This document shows, one piece after another, positions 299 through 32,868 of a DNA stretch of 32,988 nt (its first letter is position 1; every line of letters begins with the position of its first letter). The notes below the pieces were generated by a model. The model ran no database searches, was not told where the DNA came from, and saw nothing but the letters and a program-made list of their open reading frames with translations. The stretch is taken from positions 1-32,988 of the forward strand of contig CAJOOA010000023.1 in assembly GCA_905236055.1 (NCBI GenBank). The letters run 5' to 3'. Origin of the DNA: Candidatus Gastranaerophilales bacterium. Its GTDB lineage: Bacteria > Cyanobacteriota > Vampirovibrionia > Gastranaerophilales > Gastranaerophilaceae. A program made the position numbers and the translations under genes.

Positions 299-1225
299 AT
301 GAAAGTCATTCCTGTACAATTTAATACAAACAGAAACATATCTTTTTCACATTATGGTTTGGAAAAGAGTTTTGACAATGTCATAAAAAGTCGCGGATAT
401 AGTCCTGAAACCTACATTTGCCGTGATGATTTTAAATGGAAAGATTTTGTTAAATATATTGGTGAAAAGTATAGTACGGCTGATAAAGTTAATCTGGTGG
501 ATCATGCGTGCTCTGCAGGATACGAATCATATACAATATTATTACAATTAATTGAAACTTTAGGTCGCCGCAATAGTCAAAAATTTTTGCCAATATTTGC
601 AAGAGATATAGAAAAAGAGGTCATTGAATCTGCCAAACAAGGACGTTTAAAATTATGTAGAGAAGAACAACGGTGGATAGATGAACATTTTAAAAATGTA
701 TTTAATAACAATTTTAATATTGAAGATATTCAAAATATTCAGGATAGGGGTGTATACGGTATTAGTGAAAATAGTCATATTGCAACCTGCCGAACAAATT
801 TAAAAGATAATGTAATTTTTGAACAATCCGATATTTTTAATGATAAAGACTTAATAAATAAGGATAATACCATTTTGTTATTCAGAAATGTCTGGAAATA
901 TTTGGGAGAAAACAAAGTAACAGAACTTGCATTTTTTTTGGCAAATAACATGAAGCCATCTTCATTACTGGTTATTGGTAGGTATGATTTGTTGTATGGC
1001 ATTAATCTTTTGCTGGGAATATATGGATTTAAAGAAACTCCGATTAAATATGTATACGAACCGCCACGTGAGCCAGTCAATAGTACAATTGAAGAATTCC
1101 CTTTAATAAAATGTGATGGACGCTGGTTGACACCTGAACAGATGCGTGTATGTTGTATACGATTGAGTCCCTCACAACGACGTATTTATGCGGATTTAAT
1201 TAGAAAGGTAAATCCAGTATGTTGA
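299..1225 (+). CDS. CheR-like SAM-dependent methyltransferase, divergent
   Basis: The 308-residue protein has the layout of a CheR-type methyltransferase. A motif I region 'VDHACSAGYESY' (about 67-78) corresponds to the CheR 'WSAGCSTGEEPY' segment, 'IFARDIEKEVIESAKQGRL' (about 99-117) to the motif that binds the SAM ribose, and 'LFRNVWKYL' to the CheR 'CRNVLIYF' motif. CheR enzymes methylate glutamates of chemoreceptors; here the first motif is degenerate and no chemotaxis gene is nearby, so the substrate is unknown. The N-terminus (residues 1-20) is Asn-rich with Phe-Ser-His-Tyr-Gly, resembling leaders on other proteins in the window. No Shine-Dalgarno sequence is visible before the ATG. The TGA stop lies in a tRNA-like remnant at 1223-1237. 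The gene sits between full and partial copies of tRNA-Gly. Confidence 0.75.
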   Translation: MKVIPVQFNTNRNISFSHYGLEKSFDNVIKSRGYSPETYICRDDFKWKDFVKYIGEKYSTADKVNLVDHACSAGYESYTILLQLIETLGRRNSQKFLPIFARDIEKEVIESAKQGRLKLCREEQRWIDEHFKNVFNNNFNIEDIQNIQDRGVYGISENSHIATCRTNLKDNVIFEQSDIFNDKDLINKDNTILLFRNVWKYLGENKVTELAFFLANNMKPSSLLVIGRYDLLYGINLLLGIYGFKETPIKYVYEPPREPVNSTIEEFPLIKCDGRWLTPEQMRVCCIRLSPSQRRIYADLIRKVNPVC

Positions 1226-8067: not shown

Positions 8068-9318
8068 TTATGCTTTTTCAGCAATAACGTCTTTTGCAAC
8101 TTCGTTTGCAAGAGTTAAGTAGCTTCTTGTGTAACCGAATTCGTTATCATAGTATGCTTTGATAACAGCCATGTTATCGCCAATCATCATGATACTTTCA
8201 GGAACAACAAGTGCACTTTCATGCCTGCCGATTACATCTCTTGAGCTTGAACCCTTAGGAGCCATAGCTATCAAGTTTTTGTATTCTTCACTTGCTGCTG
8301 CATCTTTGAATGCTTGTTTAAGTTCATCTGCAGTAGTTGCATTCTTAAGATTCAAAGTAATAACAGCCAATGAACCATCAGCGGTTGGAACACGAGTAGC
8401 TGTACCGTTTAATTTGCCCTTAAGTTCAGGAAGAACTAAACCAACTGCCTTAGCTGCACCTGTTGTGGTCGGAATCATTGAATCAAAAGAACCACGTTTT
8501 TTAGAGTCAGCTTCTTTGTTTGATTTGTCAGCTGTAAATTGAGTAGCTGTAGCTGCGTGAACTGTTTCAATATAACCGCTTGCAACGCCGAATTTATCAT
8601 TCATCAATTTGATAATTGGAGCAATACAAGTAGTTGTACAGCTTGCAGCAGAAGCGATTCTGCCTTCATTCTTAATATCAGCAATTCTTTCGCTGTTTAC
8701 ACCTGCAACAATTGTAGGCATTGGTGTAATTGATTTGTCTTTTTCCTTGCTAGGAGCTGAAAGAAGAGCATATTTAGCTGAAGGAGTTGTAGTTAACAAT
8801 TCACCCATAGCTGCTTTACTTGTTCTAGCGCCTGTTGCATCAAGCATGATTTCAGCATTATATTTTGAGAAATCAACGTCTGCTCTTGTAGCAACAAGAT
8901 TAATATCTTCTTCGCCACCTACAGCTGATTTAACATTCAAAAATACATCGCCATCTTCATTACGTTTGATAGATGTTGCAATGCATTCCGGCAATCTGCC
9001 CAAAACGCTGTCATTTCTGATTTGTGAAAGTAAGTCTTCATCACCTACATCTTTAATAGTTTTATCGCCTTTTAAACCCATTGAACCCATGTTGATTGCA
9101 ACAAGGTTTAATTTTGGCATAACTTCTTTTAATCTGTCCCAAGTGCTATAAACACCTTTTGGCGCATGATTTGCCAATAAATATTCACGGAGAACGTTTC
9201 TACCGATTCTTCCGCCGCCGCCTACTAAAGCAACATTGGCAACATGTTTGCTTGCCATTCTTTCAATACCATTAAAATTGGTATTACTACCATAAGGTCT
9301 AATTGATTGAATTTCCAT
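8068..9318 (-). CDS. gap: Glyceraldehyde-3-phosphate dehydrogenase, long divergent form
   Basis: The protein has the GAPDH landmarks: NAD-binding 'VGGGGRIGRNVLREYL' (about 32-47), catalytic Cys227 in 'SAASCTTTCIAP', His254 in 'ETVHAATATQ', substrate-binding 'TRVPTADGSLAV' and C-terminal 'YYDNEFGYTRSYL'. At 416 residues it is about 80 longer than the usual 335: there is an N-terminal extension of about 27 residues and extra sequence in the nucleotide-binding domain (about 48-95). The extension contains 'SNTNFNG', like leaders on other proteins in this window. It oxidises glyceraldehyde-3-phosphate in glycolysis; coenzyme preference cannot be judged. The start has a strong AGGAGG. The gene is monocistronic and ends at the shared terminator. 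Confidence 0.93.
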   Translation of the reverse strand: MEIQSIRPYGSNTNFNGIERMASKHVANVALVGGGGRIGRNVLREYLLANHAPKGVYSTWDRLKEVMPKLNLVAINMGSMGLKGDKTIKDVGDEDLLSQIRNDSVLGRLPECIATSIKRNEDGDVFLNVKSAVGGEEDINLVATRADVDFSKYNAEIMLDATGARTSKAAMGELLTTTPSAKYALLSAPSKEKDKSITPMPTIVAGVNSERIADIKNEGRIASAASCTTTCIAPIIKLMNDKFGVASGYIETVHAATATQFTADKSNKEADSKKRGSFDSMIPTTTGAAKAVGLVLPELKGKLNGTATRVPTADGSLAVITLNLKNATTADELKQAFKDAAASEEYKNLIAMAPKGSSSRDVIGRHESALVVPESIMMIGDNMAVIKAYYDNEFGYTRSYLTLANEVAKDVIAEKA

Positions 9319-9523: not shown

Positions 9524-10444
9524 ATGAGCGCATTTTGGAATGGTTTCGGACAGGGCTTTGGATTCGGTTTCGGATTCAACTTCATGAACTGGTGCTGCAA
9601 TCCGTTTTTCATGGGATATGGCATGGGAATGGGCATGAGCATGCCCATGTTTGGAGGTTGGGGCATGCCTATGTTCGGAGGTTGGGGCATGCCCTCAAAT
9701 AACTTCTATTATGTACCTAATTATAGCGGACAAAGTATATATGATTATAGCCCCGCAGGTGGTGGCGGCGTTAGCGGCAATTTTGATGAGCTAACACTGA
9801 CAAAAACCGAAAACGGTAACGTTAAAAAGGAAGAACCTAAATCTGAACAACCGAAGGTATCAGAAGAGGCACAAACGCTTTATAACAGATACCACAAATT
9901 AGATGGAGTTTCTTCCGATTTAACACCGGAATTCTGCGATAAAGTTATTGAAGTAGCAAATAATGTAAAGTGCAAACCGGAAGATTTGATGGCAATAATA
10001 TATGCAGAAAGCAGATTTGATCATACATTTACATCCAAATCCAATGACAAAAAGGATGTTTATGTAGGGTTAATAAGATTTAAACATAATGACAGATGCC
10101 CGATAGATCATGAAGGTCAACAAATACTCGGTTTGGACGTAACTGTTTCTGAACTTAAAGGAATGAGTGCAATCGAACAACTTGAATATGTAAAAGAATA
10201 TATCATGGCTCATAAATCTAATTCGGCTGCAGAATTAACATTAGAAGGTCTTGCAGCAATGATTTGTACGACAGAGGGTGAGTCAACTTATTATGCTAAA
10301 AAAGGAACTGCTGCATATAGTAATAATAAAAAATTTGATATACCTACAGGTGATGGTAACAAAAAGAAAGTCGATAAAGTAATTACTCAAGATGAACTTG
10401 TTAATGGACTTGAAAAATTAAAATGCAGCACTTGGGATAAATAA
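9524..10444 (+). CDS. Gly/Phe/Met-rich protein with lysozyme-like domain
   Basis: Residues 1-60 are a low-complexity tract of Gly, Phe, Met and Trp ('GFGFGFGFNF', 'GYGMGMGMSM', then 'MPMFGGWG' twice), with no normal signal peptide. A charged linker (about 85-115) leads to an alpha-helical domain (about 115-300) with a soluble lytic transglycosylase-like core: 'PEDLMAIIYAESRFD' places Glu162 as a candidate catalytic acid, followed by 'VGLIRFK' where transglycosylases have a Gly-Leu-x-Gln-like segment. That suggests peptidoglycan cleavage, but the second motif is altered and activity is not certain. A GAGG Shine-Dalgarno precedes the ATG. The gene stands alone between divergent gap and a convergent HNH-like gene. 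Confidence 0.65.
   Translation: MSAFWNGFGQGFGFGFGFNFMNWCCNPFFMGYGMGMGMSMPMFGGWGMPMFGGWGMPSNNFYYVPNYSGQSIYDYSPAGGGGVSGNFDELTLTKTENGNVKKEEPKSEQPKVSEEAQTLYNRYHKLDGVSSDLTPEFCDKVIEVANNVKCKPEDLMAIIYAESRFDHTFTSKSNDKKDVYVGLIRFKHNDRCPIDHEGQQILGLDVTVSELKGMSAIEQLEYVKEYIMAHKSNSAAELTLEGLAAMICTTEGESTYYAKKGTAAYSNNKKFDIPTGDGNKKKVDKVITQDELVNGLEKLKCSTWDK
9641..9688 (+). repeat. 24-bp tandem repeat, two units, in-frame
   Basis: Units 9641-9664 and 9665-9688 differ at two positions and each encode MPMFGGWG. A third unit begins but stops after six bases. Copy number could vary between strains without breaking the frame. Confidence 0.85.
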
Positions 10445-14012: not shown

Positions 14013-14438
14013 ATGAATGTGCTATCCGTGAACAACATAACAACAAGAAATGCATTTAAAGGTTTGTGGAAAGAAGGACCGGAACGTATAGTTGGTTCGG
14101 ATGTTCTGGGACTAAATATGGAACAAGATTATTATTACCATCCATTTGCAGACGAATCCGAAAATGTAATAACAATGGAGCTTAAACGTGAAGCAAGGGA
14201 AATAAGTTATCCTGGAGCCGCTGAATATAGCGTAAATACTTTGAAATTTGCACCTGTACTTAAAAAAGCATTATCTTTTACTAAATCAGAATACAATGCA
14301 TATAAAAACTTTTACGGAAAAGTATTACCCGAATCAATGAAGAATATTGAACTTGAACTAAAATCATTCGGATTAAATGAATATCTTAACAAAGGATTGC
14401 TCTATAAAATAAAACAGCTACTGCATTTTTACAAATAA
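14013..14438 (+). CDS. Unknown protein with N-terminal FxG-type leader
   Basis: The 141-residue protein is not recognised. It begins 'MNVLSVNNITTRNAFKG', an Asn-rich leader with Phe-x-Gly, followed by a Tyr-rich stretch ('EQDYYYHPF') and a Lys-rich helical C-terminus ending in 'KIKQLLHFYK'. No signal peptide or membrane segment is visible. The ATG has AGGAG 7 nt upstream and its own promoter. It lies between hom and thrC but on the opposite strand, convergent with hom, so it is not part of threonine synthesis by position alone. Confidence 0.75.
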   Translation: MNVLSVNNITTRNAFKGLWKEGPERIVGSDVLGLNMEQDYYYHPFADESENVITMELKREAREISYPGAAEYSVNTLKFAPVLKKALSFTKSEYNAYKNFYGKVLPESMKNIELELKSFGLNEYLNKGLLYKIKQLLHFYK

Positions 14439-15886: not shown

Positions 15887-16042
15887 ATGCTAAAAAGAAT
15901 TAATAACCCCACTAACAATACGTTTAGCGGTGTTGAATTCATATTAAGAGGGGCTAAAAAGCGGCGTGCTATGGCCGTATCGAATGCGGTTTCAATAAAC
16001 TCGGAGACGGGCGTTCAGATGAAACTGCAAGCTGTGAAGTAA
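15887..16042 (+). CDS. 51-residue basic protein with FxG-type leader
   Basis: This short gene encodes 51 residues starting 'MLKRINNPTNNTFSGVEF', then a basic patch 'RGAKKRRAMA', with no cysteine, signal peptide or membrane segment. It is supported by an AGGAAAGGA Shine-Dalgarno about 10 nt upstream of the ATG, a -10-like TATAAA at about 15844, and an intrinsic terminator 45 bp after the stop. Codon use looks slightly richer in G and C than its neighbours. The leader resembles those of GAPDH and the 14013 gene. Function is unknown; the basic patch could bind nucleic acid, which is a guess. Confidence 0.65.
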   Translation: MLKRINNPTNNTFSGVEFILRGAKKRRAMAVSNAVSINSETGVQMKLQAVK

Positions 16043-28458: not shown

Positions 28459-29799
28459 TTATGAGAATATACCGAAGGTTCTTTCAACGTTATCGCTGAT
28501 TATCTTCTTGACTGAATCATATTGTTTTGTAAGTGCGTTCCTTTCTGTTTCAAGTTTACTTAACGCTAAATCATATTGTTTATCTTTTCTGTTAATTTGT
28601 TTTAATGCATATTCATATTCTGCTTCTGCTTTTGCCAAAGCTACTTTATCAATTTGGCTTGTCGTAGTATATGCAATAGCAGATTCTGAACTTACACTTG
28701 CACCGGTCAAAATAGTATGACCGTCAGCATCTGTCGTAAATTTCTCAATAGTCCATCTTCCGCTCTGAAGCATAGAAGTTAAGAATTCTGTATCTGAAGC
28801 TGCATCTCCGCTTGGGCCATTGAAATCATCAATTGATATACATCCGCCATGCTGCTGTATTCCTGAGAACATACGTGCATAATAGTTAAATTTATCCAAG
28901 TTTTCTTCAGGAATTCGTTCATCATTAAATATTCTGTTTCCATATTTGTGGAAGAAATAGTCCAAAAATGCCTGTGCTTCCGGAGTGTTACCAAGGGCTA
29001 ACACATTAACAAGACTTACTTCATCAACCGGTATCGGTGGTACTGGTGGTGGTGTCGGTGGTGTCGGTGGTGTCGGTGGATCCGGAGGTGTTACAGGTTG
29101 AACTGGTTGTACTTGAATAGATACCTCTTGTCCAGATGGGCTTGCGGCTCTGTCATTTACAACTTTTACCTTCTCAGCGCTCGTATTTACATTATTTACA
29201 TTATGATTACCAGTACTGTATTCGGCACTGCCATTATATACTACTTCATCACCGCTAAGTTGCTCGTTCAGCTCATAATTTGACCCACTATGAGGAACCG
29301 CATCATTATAGAGATTAAGAAGAGTTTCATCACTTAAGTAGTTTTGCTGAAGAACTTCGTCCGCTACTTCAAGAAAATCTTCCCAATCCTGACCTTCAAA
29401 AGCATTGTTTTCATTGCCATACAACATATATAAAGCAAATGCATACGCATCTTGAGGCAATGCAGATGAAATGAATTCATAATATCCTTCATAAACATCA
29501 TCAGAAACAATCAACCTTCCTCTTGAATCTATCAATGCATAATTTGCGCTCGTAGCATTTGCTCCGTTTACAGAGAATAAATTATTAAATGTGGCAGCAA
29601 CAGTAGAAGCCACTCCGTTATCATATCTGGTAAACGTGAGTGTAGTAGCATCTAGTGCATTCTGATATTTTTCATATACCTCGTCTTCCTGAGTCGACAA
29701 CTGAATCTTCGCGTTCTGTATGCTTTGCGCTTCAAACTCAACGTCATGTATTCTAGCTGTCAACATTAGCAAGCGAGCTTGCGATGCCGCCATTCCCAT
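28459..29799 (-). CDS. Unknown coiled-coil protein with proline-rich linker
   Basis: The 446-residue protein begins 'MGMAASQARLLMLTARIHDV', a conserved-looking N-terminus I associate with an uncharacterised family in gut bacteria including Gastranaerophilales. A coiled-coil-like helix (about 15-55) is followed by a mixed domain, a Pro/Thr linker (about 231-257, 'PPTPPTPPTPPPVPP'), a second domain ('EAQAFLDYFFHKYGNRIFND'), and a C-terminal coiled coil (about 385-440). There is no signal peptide. A helix at each end recalls axial flagellar proteins, but I see no specific motif to call one. AAGGA lies 9 nt before the ATG. It is divergent from a TPR-protein gene across 312 bp. Confidence 0.72.
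   Translation of the reverse strand: MGMAASQARLLMLTARIHDVEFEAQSIQNAKIQLSTQEDEVYEKYQNALDATTLTFTRYDNGVASTVAATFNNLFSVNGANATSANYALIDSRGRLIVSDDVYEGYYEFISSALPQDAYAFALYMLYGNENNAFEGQDWEDFLEVADEVLQQNYLSDETLLNLYNDAVPHSGSNYELNEQLSGDEVVYNGSAEYSTGNHNVNNVNTSAEKVKVVNDRAASPSGQEVSIQVQPVQPVTPPDPPTPPTPPTPPPVPPIPVDEVSLVNVLALGNTPEAQAFLDYFFHKYGNRIFNDERIPEENLDKFNYYARMFSGIQQHGGCISIDDFNGPSGDAASDTEFLTSMLQSGRWTIEKFTTDADGHTILTGASVSSESAIAYTTTSQIDKVALAKAEAEYEYALKQINRKDKQYDLALSKLETERNALTKQYDSVKKIISDNVERTFGIFS
29051..29077. repeat. 9-bp tandem repeat in the proline-rich linker
   Basis: Three exact copies of GGTGTCGGT encode Pro-Pro-Thr repeats on the minus strand, with degenerate copies on both sides. Slippage here would change linker length in frame. 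Confidence 0.85.
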
Positions 29800-32328: not shown

Positions 32329-32868
32329 TTACGGTTTTTCAACTTGCAAGCGGCGTTCTTCTACATGGTGGAAATCTCTCAATTTAGTATCACCCCGCCT
32401 AAGCATATCTTCTTTTGTATCATTACCCAGCATTTTGATAAGACGCAAGGTATCCTCTATGCATTCTTCCCAAGTTGTTTTTGCATTGGGTTTTGTTCCC
32501 GCATTCATCCATACCGGTTTTCTGAACAAGTTTCTGAATGCAAAAGCCCTGCTATATGAACAGTCTATTTTAATCGTCGGAACTTGCTTTTCCAATTCAA
32601 ATTGATCACAAGGCAACGCATAAGGTGTTGACGGTACTTTTCTTAACACACGCGGATAATCGTAGCGTACCTTTACCGGAACTTGTTCTGAAGTTACGGT
32701 AATTTTACCTCTATGGTTGCTGAAAAATCTCTTAATTCCGTCATTATTTAATATTTCATCACGAATAAGTTGAATATCTTTCTGATGTTTTTCAAACTCA
32801 GCACCCTTAATTTTGATTCTTAAACTATTAAAATTTAAATTGTTATTGTCCATTTTAGCTATGTACAT
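32329..32868 (-). CDS. Unknown basic protein
   Basis: The 179-residue protein is not recognised. It starts 'MYIAKMDNNNLNFNSLRIKI', an Asn-rich leader close to the FxG-type leaders elsewhere in the window, and is rich in Lys and Arg. It has no signal peptide or membrane segment. Conserved-looking patches include 'SYSRAFAFRNLFRKPVW' and 'TTWEECIEDTLRLIKML'. GGAG lies 9 nt before the ATG at 32868. The next ATG (MDNNN) would remove five residues and has no Shine-Dalgarno. The downstream neighbour on the same strand is the EF-hand gene, 91 bp away. The last 120 bp of the window hold no gene I can see. Confidence 0.7.
   Translation of the reverse strand: MYIAKMDNNNLNFNSLRIKIKGAEFEKHQKDIQLIRDEILNNDGIKRFFSNHRGKITVTSEQVPVKVRYDYPRVLRKVPSTPYALPCDQFELEKQVPTIKIDCSYSRAFAFRNLFRKPVWMNAGTKPNAKTTWEECIEDTLRLIKMLGNDTKEDMLRRGDTKLRDFHHVEERRLQVEKP

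What the first reader, a model, noticed from the sequence alone, without database searches (positions are those of the whole stretch)
15887..16042. Recurrent Asn-rich leader ending in Phe-x-Gly on unrelated proteins
Several unrelated proteins here begin with 10-18 residues rich in Asn followed by Phe-x-Gly or close to it: GAPDH ('SNTNFNG'), the 141-residue protein ('TTRNAFKG'), this 51-residue protein ('TNNTFSG'), the 179-residue protein ('NLNFNS') and the CheR-like protein ('RNISFSHYG'). On GAPDH it precedes the conserved fold. It could be a sorting tag, a docking peptide, or a conserved translation-start context specific to the lineage.
Basis: partly seen in the sequence, partly recalled or inferred. 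Interest (0 to 1): 0.62.

Follow-up and report, generated by a model that had tools for sequence, protein, structure and literature searches.

The report
N-terminal address tag in gut Melainabacteria
About one protein in 35 of this gut bacterium, most of them unrelated to each other, begins with the same short two-part peptide that looks like an address label and appears to be undescribed; the best guess, not proven, is that it marks proteins for export by a type III secretion machine that lacks flagellin.

Summary
It is a bipartite N-terminal tag, M-[KQNR]-[IV]-x-[PS]-[IV]-[NQ], then an Asn-rich, acid-free linker, then [N]-x-[NS]-F-[KGN]-[GAS], with F at residue 8-34. In a held-out test, 16 of 22 proteins chosen by the first half alone also carried the strict second half, against 8% of other proteins (p=2e-12). 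I curated 42 tagged proteins and estimate about 50 per genome. The tag is encoded at protein level, predicted disordered, ends where the fold begins, and rarely accompanies a Sec signal. It occurs across Gastranaerophilales, with no head excess elsewhere in the class. Tagged proteins are fast-turnover accessories: a second GAPDH, an extra sigma factor, phosphatases, Sec-less 5'-nucleotidases, and a cysteine-hydrolase family whose closest solved fold is the Legionella effector Ceg10. Tag-like N-termini also occur in genera that lack flagellin but keep a divergent type III export gate and an order-specific soluble FlhA_C-like protein. My best explanation is an export signal for that gate (about 0.4); a cytoplasmic docking tag is the main rival. 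The flagged 51-residue protein is a borderline member: it lacks the canonical head, and its homologue lacks F-x-G. I found no published description.

The parts
299..358 (+). Tag of the CheR-like methyltransferase (MKVIPVQFNTNRNISFSHYG); gene 299-1225
   Evidence: canonical head, tail variant F-S-H
9268..9318 (-). Tag of the second, divergent GAPDH (MEIQSIRPYGSNTNFNG); gene 8068-9318
   Evidence: residues 1-23 predicted disordered, fold begins at 27
14013..14063 (+). Tag of the 141-residue protein (MNVLSVNNITTRNAFKG); gene 14013-14438, paralogue at L183:11823 also tagged
15887..15931 (+). Borderline leader of the 51-residue protein (MLKRINNPTNNTFSG); gene 15887-16042
   Evidence: homologue in L100 lacks F-x-G
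32824..32868 (-). Borderline leader of the 179-residue protein (MYIAKMDNNNLNFNS); gene 32329-32868
   Evidence: below the PWM cut-off used

Best explanation
Shown: a bipartite, disordered, N-terminal peptide tag is shared by dozens of unrelated, fast-turnover proteins of Gastranaerophilales. Inferred: it is a targeting signal read as a linear peptide. Most likely mechanism (inferred, not shown): it is the recruitment/export signal for the order's second, divergent flagellar-type type III export gate (FlhA2, FliPQR2), perhaps through the order-specific soluble FlhA_C-like protein. The hydrophobic pair I/V3-I/V6 and the F-[KG]-G element would be two contacts joined by a flexible acid-free linker, and tagged proteins would leave the cell unfolded as effectors.
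For: Held-out bipartite test. The linker is 23% Asn and 1.9% Asp+Glu against 6.5% and 10% in other N-termini, and composition returns to normal right after F-x-G. Of the three published N-terminal patterns of type III substrates, aliphatic at position 3/4 (42/42) and no acidic residue in the first 12 (37/42 against 181/495) are met (PMC3338616), although the head motif itself fixes the first. N-terminal hydrophobic segments are rare (2/41 tagged against 103/496 untagged). 5'-nucleotidases, normally exported, carry the tag and no Sec signal. A tagged cysteine-hydrolase family best matches the Legionella effector Ceg10 (Z 10.6, next unrelated protein 6.5). Tagged proteins turn over fast (4/42 against 270/535 with homologues elsewhere). 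All sampled order members keep FlhA, nearly all two copies or the divergent one, plus the soluble FlhA_C-like protein. Genera without flagellin (g18-g29) keep only the divergent gate, and several of them show bipartite tag hits.
Against: No secretion was observed. The visible rod/basal-body genes of system 2 lack the tag. The >10% Ser pattern is not met (6/42). Known early flagellar substrates need at least 19-30 residues between their two signals (PMC8983047); here F is at residue 8-34. A sigma-70 paralogue, a GAPDH with intact Cys/His, polytopic membrane proteins and one lipoprotein-like protein carry the tag. Other families of the class have the two FlhA copies without a tag excess, so the co-occurrence amounts to one clade.
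Confidence: 0.4

Rival explanations
1. Cytoplasmic docking tag: the peptide tethers soluble enzymes and N-in membrane proteins to a lineage-specific scaffold, pole or compartment, without leaving the cell.
For: Tag on a sigma-70 paralogue, on a catalytically intact-looking GAPDH and on polytopic membrane families; the short bipartite motif with a flexible linker is typical of peptide-receptor docking (inference).
Against: No candidate scaffold found; does not explain Sec-less 5'-nucleotidases or the effector-like fold.
Confidence: 0.33
2. N-terminal degradation or regulated-stability signal read by an AAA+ protease or adaptor.
For: N-terminal position, disorder and presence on soluble and membrane proteins alike.
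Against: Sequence differs from N-degrons I know of (from memory, not tested); fast-turnover, effector-like protein content is not predicted.
Confidence: 0.1
3. Translation-start or mRNA-level context (nucleotide element).
For: It begins at the start codon.
Against: Conserved residues use many codons; variable distance to F-x-G; conserved residues are chemically meaningful (I/V, F, G/A/S).
Confidence: 0.04
4. Chance or AT-driven Asn richness plus selective reading.
Against: Shuffle, internal-Met, reversed-pattern, GTA and held-out controls all exclude it; no excess in equally AT-rich families f11 and f12.
Confidence: 0.02

Closest known systems
N-terminal signals of type III secretion substrates (P. 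syringae-type patterns, PMC3338616)
   Same: Extreme N-terminus, disordered, polar, aliphatic at position 3/4, almost no acidic residue in the first 12; shuffled onto unrelated proteins
   Different: Here there is a real sequence consensus with a second F-[KG]-G element, Asn instead of Ser enrichment, and secretion is unproven
Bipartite export signal of early flagellar subunits (hydrophobic N-terminus plus gate recognition motif, PMC8983047)
   Same: Two elements with a flexible spacer, hydrophobic residues at positions 3-7
   Different: Spacer too short; the second element is F-x-G; rod genes of these genomes lack it
Terminal reassortment of type III effectors (literature concept)
   Same: One N-terminal signal on many unrelated, lineage-specific proteins, including extra copies of housekeeping genes
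   Different: Recombination at the 5' ends was not demonstrated; DNA similarity between tags is short and explicable by protein constraint
Sec, Tat and lipoprotein signal peptides
   Same: N-terminal address
   Different: No hydrophobic core in the tag

Membership tests
Type III secretion N-terminal signal | Aliphatic residue or Pro at position 3 or 4 | tested here: met
   42/42 tagged against 270/495 untagged; partly circular because the head motif fixes position 3
Type III secretion N-terminal signal | No acidic residue in first 12 | tested here: met
   37/42 against 181/495
Type III secretion N-terminal signal | More than 10% Ser in first 50 | tested here: not met
   6/42 against 55/495
Type III secretion N-terminal signal | Genome encodes a type III export gate | tested here: met
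Type III secretion N-terminal signal | Directs secretion | not testable with these tools
   needs experiment
Early flagellar substrate signal (N-terminal hydrophobic plus GRM) | At least 19-30 residues between the two elements | tested here: not met
   F at residue 8-34, median 15, against PMC8983047
Early flagellar substrate signal (N-terminal hydrophobic plus GRM) | Present on rod/hook subunits | tested here: not met
   FlgB/C/F/G and FliE of system 2 lack the tag
Sec or lipoprotein signal peptide | Hydrophobic core near the N-terminus | tested here: not met
   2/41 tagged proteins have a TM-like segment within the first 80 residues; one (L180:3411) has a lipobox-like segment after the tag
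Microcompartment encapsulation peptide | Amphipathic N-terminal helix plus shell genes | tested here: inconclusive
   Tag predicted non-helical and disordered in two models; shell genes not searched

The most novel reading that the evidence does not exclude
Gastranaerophilales of animal and human guts run a divergent, flagellin-free type III secretion system with an extra soluble FlhA_C sorting protein, and this tag is its export signal, so the tag reads out a whole, fast-evolving effector repertoire in a non-photosynthetic cyanobacterial lineage.
Probability: 0.3. Interest if true: 0.92.

Novelty: new variant of a known kind. Interest (0 to 1): 0.72.

Why it matters
An apparently undescribed protein address signal on about 3% of the proteins of a common, mostly uncultured gut lineage gives a handle on hundreds of orphan proteins. 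If it marks type III export, it would expose a previously unrecognised secretion system and effector set in gut cyanobacteria-relatives and explain why genera without flagellin keep a flagellar export gate. If it is a docking tag, it points to an unknown intracellular structure.

Tried and rejected
Loose regexes (M.[IV] with F.[GS]) gave weak signal (31 against 20.6 expected) and were replaced by the bipartite definition. Internal copies of the tail: not enriched overall, though a few membrane proteins have one. Hypothesis that the tag is the canonical flagellar export signal: rejected, since tag-like N-termini occur in flagellin-less genera and structural flagellar subunits lack it. FliW (L016, L083), L003:3318 and L022:9802 were judged chance head matches and left out of most counts. 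Homologues of the GAPDH in viral contigs: none. Papers on such a motif: none found. The family search for related loci returned only two named genomes. Nucleotide-level element: rejected on codon variation.

Full report
What was checked. The ORF at 15887-16042 exists, with a Shine-Dalgarno-like site. I sampled the window's own genome (G000, 1.76 Mb; the window is contig 23) in stretches and called genes with a simple script. Its limits are that starts are chosen by SD and ATG, and no trained model was used.

The tag. Reading N-termini of unrelated genes side by side shows not only F-x-G but a constant beginning: M-[KQNR]-[IV]-x-[PS]-[IV]-[NQ]. An iterated position matrix gave 32 proteins well separated from the rest (lowest 14.9, next 9.3); this separation is partly circular, since the matrix was trained on them. 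Independent tests follow. (a) Head plus tail: 13 against 0.3 in shuffles, and 1 of 2,485 internal Met segments. In the small held-out half of that first sample alone, the head-tail association was not significant (p 0.06-0.30). (b) Head-only DNA pattern over the whole genome: 31 hits, against 2 for the reversed and 4 for the GTA pattern. (c) Of 26 head-selected places outside the discovery stretches, 22 encode at least 45 residues, and 16 of those carry the strict tail against 8% of other proteins (Fisher p=2e-12; within-protein shuffles mean 2.4, max 8). The test is held out because the tail played no part in choosing these proteins.

Anatomy. Residue 3 is I or V (38/38 of the aligned set), residue 6 I or V (37/38), residue 5 P or S (29/38), residue 7 N or Q (29/38). 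F lies at residue 8-34 (median 15), preceded by S or N (27/38), followed by K, G or N (36/38) and then G, A or S (29/38). The linker is 23% Asn and 1.9% Asp+Glu, against 6.5% and 10% for residues 8-20 of untagged proteins; right after the tag the acidic content is 13%. Codons at conserved residues vary. In two AlphaFold models the tag is disordered (GAPDH residues 1-23, cysteine-hydrolase residues 1-10) and the fold starts directly after. The motif is enriched at N-termini (12 against 1.9 expected) but not internally (13 against 12.4).

Who carries it. I curated 42 proteins in the G000 sequence read. About 20 of them come from some 700 kb not chosen for heads, which extrapolates to about 50 per genome, near 3% of proteins. 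Of some 30 own-genome tagged proteins scanned with Pfam, including the window members, most have no convincing family. The others: CheR-like methyltransferase, GAPDH, sigma-70, 5'-nucleotidase/metallophosphatase, DSP phosphatase, a second methyltransferase and weak transglutaminase. GAPDH and sigma are extra divergent copies beside untagged relatives. The GAPDH tag sits before the residue where housekeeping GAPDHs begin, and an orthologue in another family of the order (44% identity) has its own version, ending KISFKG. In a seven-member cysteine-hydrolase family the tag F is invariant together with Cys, His and Asp; its model matches Legionella Ceg10 with Z 10.6 over 168 residues, rmsd 4.2, next different protein 6.5. 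A membrane family keeps the tag across families at 39% identity, and in two named genomes, Candidatus Adamsella avium and a Gastranaerophilales MAG. Tagged proteins rarely have homologues in 1.86 Mb of other-genome sequence (4/42 against 270/535, p=7e-8).

Distribution. Head pattern against GTA control (sums by hand): G000 31 against 4; 37 genomes of other genera in the family 285 against 154; 43 genomes of families f9-f15 136 against 138. The same genus averages about 11, against about 2 for the reversed pattern. Bipartite DNA hits in flagellin-less genera translate as clear tags, e.g. MKINSINSTNFKG and MKIYPVNQVQKNTFKG (my translation). Genomes are related, so these counts are not independent.

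Candidate machinery. Nearly all sampled order members have a second, divergent FlhA or only that one, plus a soluble FlhA_C-like protein of about 495 residues. In G000, FlhA1 passes the curated FlhA cut-off, while FlhA2 (706 against 772 bits), FliF2 and FliR2 do not. FlhA2 lies with FliE, FliF and FliH, and a FliPQR-like set lies at L040. Genera g18-g29 have no flagellin, mostly one FliR and the divergent FlhA. Published work notes partial flagellar gene sets in this order (PMC5877343). A flagellin-free type III system is therefore a plausible reader of the tag; that step is inference. The co-occurrence is one clade and the receptor is a guess.

Against export. The system's own rod genes lack the tag, a sigma factor and membrane proteins carry it, Ser enrichment is absent, and spacing does not fit the flagellar rule. 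So I hold the export reading at about 0.4 and docking at about 0.33.

The flagged 51-residue protein. Its leader MLKRINNPTNNTFSG is Asn-rich and acid-free with F-S-G, but lacks the head, and its homologue in L100 reads MIRNYSNNSNTSNANR-FILR without F-x-G. It led to the finding but is its weakest example.

No description of such a motif was found in the library searched; subscription papers and preprints are not in it.

Noticed in passing
L074:13538-15019 (-); L116:8224-9690 (+); L100:4264-5745 (+); G000 contig 91:9999-11030: Soluble protein of about 495 aa with a FlhA cytoplasmic domain, in Gastranaerophilales genomes throughout the samples and almost nowhere else in the class; in Candidatus Adamsella it sits with FliJ, FliK, FlgD and FlgE genes.
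   Followed up: partly
L112:4405-6495, L040:975-3328 (own genome): A second, divergent type III export gate (FlhA2, FliPQR-like) whose FlhA2 and FliR2 fall below curated FlhA/SctV and FliR/SctT cut-offs; genera without flagellin keep only this one.
   Followed up: partly
window 28459-29799 (-) and L013:3517-4755 (-): Family of 412-446 aa proteins beginning MGMAASQA-LL-LT-R-HD without Pfam match (the window copy was scanned).
   Followed up: no
window 9524-10444 (+): 306-aa protein with a Gly/Met/Phe/Pro-rich N-terminus and no Pfam match.
   Followed up: no
L180:3411-4178 (+): Tag followed by a lipoprotein-like signal (LPMFTSC) at about residue 60: an N-terminal extension in front of a signal peptide.
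   Followed up: no
G115 contig 193:36103-36158 (-), family f9: Single tag-like start outside the order (MSISPIQPNFSGSKTKFSG); may be chance or an early form of the tag.
   Followed up: no
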